From: Sulfurospirillum barnesii SES-3
GTDB lineage: Bacteria > Campylobacterota > Campylobacteria > Campylobacterales > Sulfurospirillaceae
Direction: 5' to 3'
Assembly (NCBI RefSeq): GCF_000265295.1
Contig: NC_018002.1
Location: forward strand, 248,001 to 312,000
Length of the DNA stretch: 64,000 nt
Positions 35,082-62,525 of this stretch are shown here, one piece after another; the first letter of the stretch is position 1; each line of letters begins with the position of its first letter. Position numbers and translations under genes: made by a program. The notes under the pieces are model-generated. The model did not search any database, was not told where the DNA came from, and was given only the letters and a program-made list of their open reading frames with translations.

Positions 35082-35106
35082 AATGTATAATTTTGGCGAA
35101 ACTTAT

Positions 35107-35254
35107 TTCTCAGGGCAGGGTGTGATTCCCTACTGGCGGTAATCTTTTATAAAGAGAGTCCGCGAGCGCTTTTGTCTTTACATGTAAAGCTAAAAGGTCA
35201 GCAGATTTGGTGTGATTCCAAAACCAACGGTTAAAGTCCGGATGAGAGAGAATG
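35107..35254 (+). promoter_or_regulatory. FMN riboswitch before ribB, carrying a palindrome copy
   Basis: The conserved FMN-aptamer blocks appear in order: TCAGGGCAGGGTG, CTGGCGGTAATC, CGCGAGCGC, GGTCAGCAGATTTGGTG, ACCAACGGTTAAAGTCC and GGATGAGAGAGAATG. It should bind FMN and repress ribB when flavin is plentiful. Between CGCGAGCGC and GGTCAGCAG, the position of the variable arm, lies a 14-bp palindrome copy (35176-35189), flanked by CTTTT and AAAG, which would form that arm. About 90 bases, the expected expression platform, separate it from the ribB start. Confidence 0.93.
35176..35189. repeat. Palindrome copy inside the FMN riboswitch variable arm
   Basis: CTTTACATGTAAAG, a 14-bp perfect palindrome matching the dispersed motif, located in the part of the aptamer that varies in length between species. 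Confidence 0.85.
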
Positions 35255-35343
35255 TAGTCTATGATTGCCATTGTTTGTGACAAGTTCAGTGCTATATTTA
35301 AAAATGCCCTGATTCAAGTTTACTCTAAACCAAAGGGTTTACC

Positions 35344-35988
35344 ATGAATCAAATGTGTGCGAATTTCTCGTTAGAACACTCCGTTTCGCTTGCTCTAAAA
35401 GCGCTTCAAAACAAAAAAGGTGTCATTGTCATGGATCGTTATGATCGTGAAAATGAAGCCGATATTATCTTTCATGCCGAGTCTTTAACCCCTGAGCAAA
35501 TGGCACTGCTTATTCGTGAGTGCAGTGGCATTGTCTGTTTGTGTTTACCGCCACAAAAGGTCGATGAACTAGGGCTTCCCATGATGGTCTCTCACAACGA
35601 GTCCAAATTTCAAACAGGTTTTACCGTCACCATCGAAGCCAAAGAGGGTGTTAGCACAGGCGTGAGTGCGAAAGACAGAGTCACCACTATTCAAGCCGCC
35701 ATTCATGCGGATGGCAAAGCAAAAATCGTCTCCCCTGGGCATGTTTTTCCTTTGCGTGCACGAGAAAATGGAGTTTTAGAGCGTGAGGGTCACACCGAAG
35801 CGTCCGTGGACTTAATGAAATTAGCAGGGCTTTCACCCTACGCCGTGTTGTGTGAAATGACCAACGCCGATGGAACCATGAGTGTGGGAGAAGAAATTCT
35901 TAGTTTTGCACAAAAACACGATTTTCCTATAGTGAGTATTGATGAGATTATTGCCTATCGGAAGATGCTTCAAGCACAAAACGCTTAA
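35344..35988 (+). CDS. ribB: 3,4-dihydroxy-2-butanone 4-phosphate synthase
   Basis: A 214-residue RibB, which makes the four-carbon unit of riboflavin from ribulose 5-phosphate. Motifs: [43 protein letters not shown], and [21 protein letters not shown]. There is no fused GTP cyclohydrolase domain, so this is the single-function form. It is controlled by the FMN riboswitch upstream. Its last 41 bases overlap the convergent LysR-type gene. Confidence 0.93.
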
Positions 35989-36832: not shown

Positions 36833-36947
36833 GATGGCTTCTTATTAAAAATATTCATGATTATAACAAATATAATTTATTTTACTTATGGTAAAAAAGG
36901 GTTTATAATTCAAAATTCTTGCCAAACTTAGTTTGCAAGAAGAAAAA

Positions 36948-37036
36948 GCACCAAAGGTGCGTGGGCATTCTGCCGAAGAAAACTCAGTGTTAACGTAGTC
37001 TTGAAAGCTTTGCTTTAAAGACGTGTCAAGAGTTCT
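36948..37036 (+). ncRNA. Structured intergenic element, copy A
   Basis: An 89-base element that is about 87% identical to 53192-53281 (78 of 90 aligned positions by eye). It begins with the hairpin GCACC-AAA-GGTGC, then GGCA-TTC-TGCC, then an outer stem AACTC...GAGTT enclosing a GT-GTTA-AC mini-hairpin, the tetranucleotide GTAG and an 11-position hairpin (GTCTTGAAAGC facing GCTTTAAAGAC). Differences from copy B keep the pairs (T-A to C-G, A-T to G-C). It ends 38 bases before the yeiH-like GTG. It could be a leader RNA, a small RNA or a mobile repeat; strand is set by the downstream gene only. Confidence 0.55.
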
Positions 37037-37074
37037 GTAAGAGCTCTGGTGAAAACAAGCTAAGGATTTTAAAG

Positions 37075-53184: not shown

Positions 53185-53191
53185 TAAAAAA

Positions 53192-53281
53192 GCACCAAAG
53201 GTGCGCTGGGCACTCTGCCGAAGAGAACTCAGCGTTAGCGTAGCTTTTAGAGCTTAGCTCTAAAGGCGTGTCAAGAGTTCT
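53192..53281 (+). ncRNA. Structured intergenic element, copy B
   Basis: A 90-base element, the relative of 36948-37036. Hairpins: GCACC-AAA-GGTGC; GGCA-CTC-TGCC; an outer 8-bp stem GAGAACTC...GAGTTCTC (reaching one base beyond the aligned element); inside it GC-GTTA-GC, GTAG and an 11-bp hairpin GCTTTTAGAGC-TTA-GCTCTAAAGGC. Compared with copy A the paired positions change together. It lies 33 bases before the aminotransferase ATG. The two downstream genes are unrelated, which argues rather for a repeat or a small RNA than for a shared riboswitch. Confidence 0.55.
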
Positions 53282-53314
53282 CACAACTCTATAAAATTTA
53301 TTGAAGAGTAAAGA

Positions 53315-61641: not shown

Positions 61642-61696
61642 AAAATTTCCTTAATAGGGGTCAGGGCTAAACTTTTAACTTTTTAACGTACTGTGG

Positions 61697-61702
61697 TATA
61701 AT
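61697..61702 (+). promoter_or_regulatory. -10 box of the transposase gene
   Basis: GTGGTATAAT with TATAAT at 61697-61702, 23 bases before the ATG and just inside the left inverted repeat. Confidence 0.5.
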
Positions 61703-61725
61703 TTTATCTAAAAAAGAGGGTCTTT

Positions 61726-62484
61726 ATGCCACGACGTTTACGTATTGAAAGTTTAGGGTATCATCATATCTATAACAGAGGCGTTGCTAAAGGGAATATT
61801 TTCGAAGATGAAAAAGACAAAGCAAAATTTATTGAACTGATGGCAACTGTGGCTAAGGAGTTTAAGTTTAACATTCACTCCTTTTGTTTGATGGACAATC
61901 ACTACCATATTCTTCTTGAAAATAAACGTGAAAATCTCTCATCAGGCATGCGCCAACTGGGCGCTCAGTATGCCAGTTATTTTAACAAACGCCATAACCG
62001 TGTAGGACATTTGTGGCAAGACCGCTTTAAGTCATGGTTCGTTTTAGACGAGCAATACCTTTTTACACTCTTTAAATACATTGAAAATAATCCTGTAAAA
62101 GCCAAAATGAGTGAAAGAATTGGTGCTTATCCTTATTGTGCAACCTACAGTATTTTTAAAGATGCAATACCTTTGTTTTTAGAAAATAGCTTTGTGTTAC
62201 GAGAATACCATACGCAGGAGCTTTTTGAGGTTTTAAATATCCCTTTAAATGAAACTGAAGTGGAACGTATTGAGGCATTTCATCGCACACGATATAAGCA
62301 GGTAGAGGGTGAAATTACACCTTTACATGTAAAAGAATTGACAGAGTATTTTTTACATGTAAAGGAAAAAGCAGAACGAAACATTGCCATAAAAAATGCT
62401 TATGCAGATAGGTATACAAAAAGTGAAATTTCTCGATTTCTTCATTTAAGCGTTGCAGGCGTAAGTAAAATCTTAAAAAGTTAA
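61726..62484 (+). CDS. REP-associated-type Y1 transposase (IS200-like)
   Basis: A 252-residue HUH transposase. MDNHYHILLE (His59, His61) is the metal-binding HUH motif; GHLWQDRFKSWFV and LFKYIENNPVKAKM are the family signature, with the catalytic Tyr probably in this last region. The C-terminal part has a helix-turn-helix-like segment (TKSEISRFLHLSVAGVSKIL). It matches the RAYT group rather than IS605 TnpA, being longer and without tnpB. Two palindrome copies lie 30 bases apart in it (62322-62333, 62352-62363), both read as LHVK. Confidence 0.88.
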   Translation: MPRRLRIESLGYHHIYNRGVAKGNIFEDEKDKAKFIELMATVAKEFKFNIHSFCLMDNHYHILLENKRENLSSGMRQLGAQYASYFNKRHNRVGHLWQDRFKSWFVLDEQYLFTLFKYIENNPVKAKMSERIGAYPYCATYSIFKDAIPLFLENSFVLREYHTQELFEVLNIPLNETEVERIEAFHRTRYKQVEGEITPLHVKELTEYFLHVKEKAERNIAIKNAYADRYTKSEISRFLHLSVAGVSKILKS

Positions 62485-62525
62485 AAGTTTAGCCCTGACC
62501 CCTATTGAAAAGAAAGGAAAAGAGC

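What the first reader, a model, noticed from the sequence alone, without database searches (positions are those of the whole stretch)
36948..37036. Two conserved, structured ~90-nt intergenic elements with compensatory changes
Elements at 36948-37036 and 53192-53281 are about 87% identical. At least three pair changes keep the stems (T-A to C-G in the GTTA mini-hairpin, T-A to C-G and A-T to G-C in the large hairpin), so the fold, as RNA or single-stranded DNA, is under selection. The consensus fits none of the riboswitches or ribozymes I could recall. The downstream genes, yeiH-like and wecE-like, are unrelated.
Basis: partly seen in the sequence, partly recalled or inferred. Interest (0 to 1): 0.75.

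Follow-up and report, generated by a model that had tools for sequence, protein, structure and literature searches.

The report
Mobile pseudoknotted RNA-like element in Campylobacterales
The two look-alike stretches are copies of a small (~105-letter) non-coding mobile element that folds into a conserved pseudoknotted shape and has spread through many relatives of Campylobacter, leaving long target duplications of variable length, a pattern better known from SINE-type retroposons of animals than from bacteria.

Summary
The two window elements belong to a multicopy family found in all 24 genomes of the genus (Sulfurospirillum) and, as an 85-nt core, in 62 of 200 Campylobacterales genomes (21 of 70 genera). 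Covariation is overwhelming: in 108 distinct distant copies 97.6% of pair cells are paired, with 713 double changes. G·U far outnumbers A·C, so the strand as read is the folding one. No Rfam family matches.

The family is mobile. Intact Sulfurospirillum copies sit in a 136-bp IS5-type MITE with 3-bp target duplications; the matching 916-bp IS occurs in sister species. Elsewhere the bare ~105-nt unit inserts with 9-41 bp duplications, and relatives carry empty sites with one copy of the duplicated sequence. Both window sites are also empty in sister species.

Orientation to genes is random, so it is not a riboswitch. Most genomes checked, including the one with the freshest insertions, lack a reverse transcriptase; several carriers lack a RAYT gene. 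The enzyme is unknown. A SINE-like, RNA-mediated route is the most novel reading not excluded.

The parts
36912..37047 (+). Copy 1, full 136-bp MITE form (diverged ends)
   Evidence: site empty in G002, G020, G007, G023
36912..36942 (+). Left terminal inverted repeat, itself a hairpin
36943..37027 (+). Copy 1, 85-nt structured core (model R1)
   Evidence: 104.6 bits
36948..36960 (+). Hairpin GCACC-AAA-GGTGC
   Evidence: covariation
36964..36980 (+). H-type pseudoknot: GGC 36964-36966 with GCC 36972-36974, interleaved with TTCT 36968-36971 and AGAA 36977-36980
   Evidence: both helices covary
36987..36994 (+). Mini-hairpin GT-GTTA-AC (GNNA loop)
36995..37022 (+). GTAG followed by the long variable hairpin (36998-37022)
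37029..37047 (+). Right terminal inverted repeat, itself a hairpin
53187..53290 (+). Copy 2, unit without the left MITE end; right hairpin 53274-53290 kept
   Evidence: occupied in seven aligned genomes, empty in seven
53187..53272 (+). Copy 2, structured core
   Evidence: 99.3 bits
53209..53225 (+). Pseudoknot of copy 2: GGC/GCC with CTCT/AGAG
   Evidence: sequence

Best explanation
Both elements are copies of a Campylobacterales-wide family of ~105-nt non-coding mobile elements. The strand as read folds into a conserved shape: hairpin, H-type pseudoknot, GNNA mini-hairpin, GTAG, long hairpin. SHOWN: structure by covariation; multicopy spread across 20+ genera; insertion as a discrete unit of ~102-112 nt with 9-41 bp target duplications; empty sites in relatives; in Sulfurospirillum, packaging in an IS5-type MITE with 3-bp duplications, and a matching full IS in sister species. 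INFERRED: the folded single strand (most likely the RNA) is what the unknown insertion enzyme recognises; target strands are cut 9-41 nt apart and filled in, which makes the variable duplications. Copy 1 (36912-37047) most likely arrived by the IS5-type route. Copy 2 (53187-53290) more likely by the bare-unit route, its flanks holding only a decayed, possible duplication.
For: Copies. Covariation with controls: 13 pairs and 91 cells with double change, score 0.258 vs 0.158 shuffled; 97.6% paired, 713 double-change cells vs 222 shuffled, score 0.751 vs 0.235, slid versions at most 0.17. Strand asymmetry: G·U 188 vs A·C 60, 49 of the A·C from one column pair that is not a real pair, so 188 vs 11. 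MITE: 42 of 66 full copies have an exact 3-bp duplication, shuffled mean 16.4, most 26 in 500. IS: 916 bp, TIR 17/18 identical, 15 of 16 copies with 3-bp duplication; transposase matches IS5 family models. Long duplications: 10 of 168 non-tandem copies score 12 or more, against 4 of 5000 control pairs; in one genome 6 of 12 copies. Empty sites.
Against: Most copies (158 of 168) show no long duplication, which must be put down to age; one of the ten (L326) looks like a partial tandem copy. No dedicated enzyme found: no RVT_1 reverse transcriptase in the genome with the freshest insertions, nor in 25 of 32 checked; several rich carriers lack Y1_Tnp. Transcription of the unit was not tested. The 3' ends are A/T-rich but share no strict tail. 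The distant alignment was fitted to the model, so its counts lean towards the structure.
Confidence: 0.78

Rival explanations
1. An ordinary IS5-type MITE: the structure is only what palindromic ends and internal repeats give, and the core has no life of its own.
For: TIRs, 3-bp duplications and a matching IS in the genus; random orientation.
Against: The core occurs without these TIRs in 20 other genera, inserts with long duplications and covaries, pseudoknot included.
Confidence: 0.1
2. A REP/BIME-like repeat moved by a REP-associated tyrosine (Y1/HUH) transposase: GTAG plus hairpin is the REP signature.
For: GTAG directly before a hairpin in almost all copies; two Y1_Tnp genes in the own genome, one in the window; NF047646 match, just under its cut-off.
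Against: The genes here are framed by other repeats; genomes with 18, 11 and 69 copies have no Y1_Tnp hit; target duplications are not made by HUH enzymes.
Confidence: 0.07
3. A cis-regulatory leader RNA (riboswitch-like) that has multiplied.
For: Strong RNA-type covariation; both window copies lie upstream of a gene in sense; several sense copies just before rpmJ in two families.
Against: Neighbour orientations are balanced, ++23 -+20 --19 +-19 in the genus and ++33 --33 +-31 -+17 outside; downstream genes unrelated; no Rfam match.
Confidence: 0.04
4. Bacterial SINE-like retroposon: an RNA of the unit is copied into DNA at a nicked target by a reverse transcriptase acting in trans.
For: Variable 9-41 bp duplications, discrete ~105-nt unit, A/T-rich 3' ends, RNA-type covariation with G·U excess.
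Against: No RVT_1 domain in G148, G158, G187, G205; no transcript data; no strict 3' tail.
Confidence: 0.3
5. Paired changes arise by template switching in quasi-palindromes, not by selection on a fold.
For: Most helices are short local hairpins, where such correction is known to happen.
Against: The pseudoknot helices interleave; G·U is kept and A·C is not; template switching would leave perfect pairs without strand bias.
Confidence: 0.04

Closest known systems
MITEs of the IS5 family (ISL2-like group)
   Same: Full-length Sulfurospirillum copies: TIRs, 3-bp duplication, matching 916-bp two-frame IS in sister species; ISCaa2 of Amoebophilus (ISL2 group) is also 916 bp with two ORFs and a -1 frameshift (PMC3196728)
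   Different: The core has its own mobility without TIRs, long variable duplications and a conserved pseudoknot
REP / BIME elements with RAYT
   Same: Small, intergenic, multicopy, GTAG before a hairpin
   Different: Target duplications present; RAYT not needed; further conserved helices
ERIC, RUP, NEMIS/Correia-type bacterial intergenic repeats (from memory)
   Same: ~100-150 bp, palindromic, scattered, random orientation
   Different: Those have no or short TA-type duplications as far as I recall; no pseudoknot covariation known to me
SINE retroposons of eukaryotes
   Same: Short non-coding structured unit, variable target duplications, A/T-rich 3' end
   Different: No reverse transcriptase partner found; bacterial; no strict tail

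Membership tests
IS5-family MITE | TIRs matching an autonomous IS | tested here: met
   17/18 identical to a 916-bp IS5-type element in five sister genomes; holds for full-length Sulfurospirillum copies, not for copy 2 or core-only copies
IS5-family MITE | same target duplication as the IS | tested here: met
   3 bp, mostly ATT/AAT, in both; copy 1 itself has no intact duplication
REP/RAYT | GTAG-type tetranucleotide plus hairpin | tested here: met
REP/RAYT | RAYT gene in the genome, flanked by the repeat | tested here: not met
   other repeats flank the genes here; no gene in several rich carriers
REP/RAYT | no target duplication | tested here: not met
   9-41 bp duplications
riboswitch / leader RNA | sense orientation upstream of related genes | tested here: not met
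any Rfam family | covariance-model match | tested here: not met
   gathering, window; E up to 5, eight distant loci
SINE-like retroposon | variable long target duplications with empty sites | tested here: met
SINE-like retroposon | reverse transcriptase partner in carriers | tested here: not met
   RVT_1 in 7 of 32 genomes, none in G148 with the freshest insertions
SINE-like retroposon | common 3' tail | tested here: inconclusive
   A/T-rich but not uniform
SINE-like retroposon | discrete transcript of the unit | not testable with these tools
   no RNA data

The most novel reading that the evidence does not exclude
A bacterial SINE-like retroposon: a ~105-nt pseudoknotted RNA that is copied back into DNA at staggered target breaks by an enzyme not of the RVT_1 type, or supplied only transiently, and that has also been captured by at least one, probably two, unrelated TIR elements as a passenger.
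Probability: 0.3. Interest if true: 0.93.

Novelty: new variant of a known kind. Interest (0 to 1): 0.74.

Why it matters
Small bacterial intergenic repeats are known, but their movers are mostly DDE or HUH transposases with fixed short or no duplications. A pseudoknotted, strongly covarying element with 9-41 bp duplications and no recognised enzyme points to an undescribed insertion mechanism. Fresh insertions with known empty sites make it directly testable. It also gives a ready covariance model for annotating hundreds of unannotated stretches in Campylobacterota genomes.

Tried and rejected
Rfam at gathering and relaxed thresholds: nothing. RAYT/REP: rejected on gene presence and duplications. 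Riboswitch/leader: rejected on orientation. TIR-like matches outside elements in the own genome: those inspected lay in or beside genes, about as many as the reversed control pattern gives. Autonomous carrier between neighbouring copies: glutaminase-like gene in L318, ribosomal-protein operon in L325, so no. RVT_1 partner: not found in most. Viral origin: one match in the viral contigs. Literature: no paper with these sequences or on Sulfurospirillum MITEs in the open-access set. L326's 37-bp repeat looks like a partial tandem copy and is weak support. The four identical pairs before 23S rRNA in G175 are rrn copies, not recent moves.

Full report
1. The observation. The three compensatory changes are real. 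Single-sequence folding is unremarkable for copy 1 (z -1.2) and strong for copy 2 (z -3.9), so the case rests on comparison.

2. Copies. The own genome (2,510,109 bp, one contig; the window is its 248001-312000) holds 15 BLAST matches and 20 model matches. All 24 genomes of the genus carry the family, 3 to 43 copies each in a search that capped its candidates. Contig lengths of G010 and G003 equal those of Sulfurospirillum cavolei UCH003 and S. diekertiae JPD-1, so the genus is Sulfurospirillum. Copies occur singly and in tandem (94-bp period at 2371961-2372208; 92-bp in G010).

3. Full form in this genus. Aligned copies end in AGACTTCTTGCAAAACTC and GAGTTCTGCAAGAACTCT, which are inverted repeats of each other and each palindromic within. 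Of 66 full copies, 42 are flanked by an exact 3-bp direct repeat. Shuffled partners give 16.4 on average and 26 at most in 500; no copy has 4 bp. Sister genomes G003, G004, G006, G011 and G022 carry a 916-bp IS with TIR AGACATCTTGCAAAACTC (17/18) and 3-bp duplications (ATT, AAT, AGT) in 15 of 16 cases. Its two reading frames match the two halves of the NCBIfam IS5 model NF033581, each below the whole-protein cut-off as expected for a split protein. ISCaa2, of the ISL2 group of IS5, has the same length and a -1 frameshift (PMC3196728); placing our IS in that group is a resemblance, not a test. No DDE_Tnp_1 gene is found in the own genome, so copies there now seem to lack a resident mover. This part is an IS5-type MITE.

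4. The core is wider. A covariance model of the 85-nt core (R1) finds 62 of 200 Campylobacterales genomes, 21 of 70 genera, many copies each, up to 69 in one. A pattern scan of the GTDB contigs stopped at its limit with 120 stretches. The titles listed are Campylobacterota (Sulfurovum, Sulfurimonas, Sulfuricurvum, Hydrogenimonas, Arcobacter and others) except two stretches of one genome titled only 'Proteobacteria'; absence from other phyla is thus only partly tested. One viral contig matches.

5. Structure. In the genus-level alignment 13 of 27 pairs show double changes, 91 cells, with no shuffle reaching the cell count or the covariation score. In 108 distinct distant copies, 97.6% of cells pair, 22 of 24 pairs have double changes, 713 cells, score 0.751 against 0.235 shuffled and 0.17 or less when slid (that alignment was fitted to the model and leans towards it). 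The central part is an H-type pseudoknot: RGC/GCY (first pair AU 55, GC 50) interleaved with a 4-bp helix whose pairs all covary. The long hairpin after GTAG varies freely in sequence but stays paired. G·U cells exceed A·C cells 188 to 60, or 188 to 11 without one column pair that is not a real pair, so the strand as read is the one that folds. That is natural for RNA; single-stranded DNA of this sense is not excluded.

6. Mobility of the bare unit. Among 168 non-tandem, non-MITE copies, 10 have flanking direct repeats scoring 12 or more, against 4 of 5000 control pairs. In G148, 6 of 12 copies show repeats: 9, 26, 27, 30, 31 and 41 bp; in G187, 20 and 26 bp. The DNA between is 102-112 nt. Relatives carry the uninterrupted site with one copy of the repeat: ten genomes for L192, two for L391, three for L396, five for L388. 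The L192 site is also split in G233 and G168, so that insertion may be older than it looks. The repeats lie mostly at gene ends and restore stop, ribosome site or start, which would explain survival. Orientation to neighbours is random.

7. The two window copies. Copy 1: occupied in the own genome, G015 and G016, empty in four aligned congeners. Copy 2: occupied in seven aligned genomes (a tandem doublet in G014), empty in seven where the flanking genes almost touch. Orthologous copies differ by compensated pairs (CTCT/AGAG versus TTCC/GGAA), so the fold is kept in place or renewed by conversion. The flanks of copy 2 (TTAAAAGTA.. / TTAAGAGTA..) may be a decayed duplication; this is weak.

8. 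Mechanism. Shown: discrete unit, variable duplications, empty sites, conserved fold, separate packaging by an IS5-type element; probably also inside another TIR (TGCCATTAAGTT) in G179. Inferred: recognition of the folded strand, staggered cuts 9-41 nt apart. From general knowledge, DDE enzymes give fixed short duplications and HUH enzymes none, so neither explains the bare unit well. Retroposition fits the duplications, but RVT_1 is absent from G148, G158, G187 and G205. I therefore hold the enzyme unknown and RNA-mediated insertion at about 0.3.

9. Novelty. Nothing in Rfam and nothing found in the open-access literature searched. As a class (small non-autonomous intergenic repeats) it is of a known kind; its insertion signature and pseudoknot make it a new variant, and possibly a new kind.

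Noticed in passing
window, 36 sites, e.g. 1863, 3104, 4652, 24981, 62322: Palindrome TTTACATGTAAA occurs 36 times with up to 1 mismatch against 0.64 expected, in and between genes and beside some MITE insertions; possible uptake, chromosome-organisation or regulator site.
   Followed up: partly
61653-62506: REP-associated tyrosine transposase-like gene (61726-62484; NF047646 just under cut-off) framed by a perfect 34-bp inverted repeat, AATAGGGGTCAGGGCTAAAC...
   Followed up: partly
35102-35257: FMN riboswitch (RF00050, 113 bits), upstream of the 35344-35988 ORF.
   Followed up: no
L171, L180, L223, L227, L232: Sense copies of the core lie directly before rpmJ in two families; possible co-option as a leader.
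   Followed up: no
L195, L213, L214, L215: Overlapping inverted pair of cores just upstream of what reads as 23S rRNA in four places of one genome (G175).
   Followed up: no
L242, L245, L246, L258, L338: Core enclosed by another inverted repeat, TGCCATTAAGTT...AACTTAATGGCA, suggesting a second capture by a different TIR element.
   Followed up: partly
L325: Core copies between several genes of the tuf-nusG-rplK-rplA-rplJ region of a Sulfurimonas genome.
   Followed up: no
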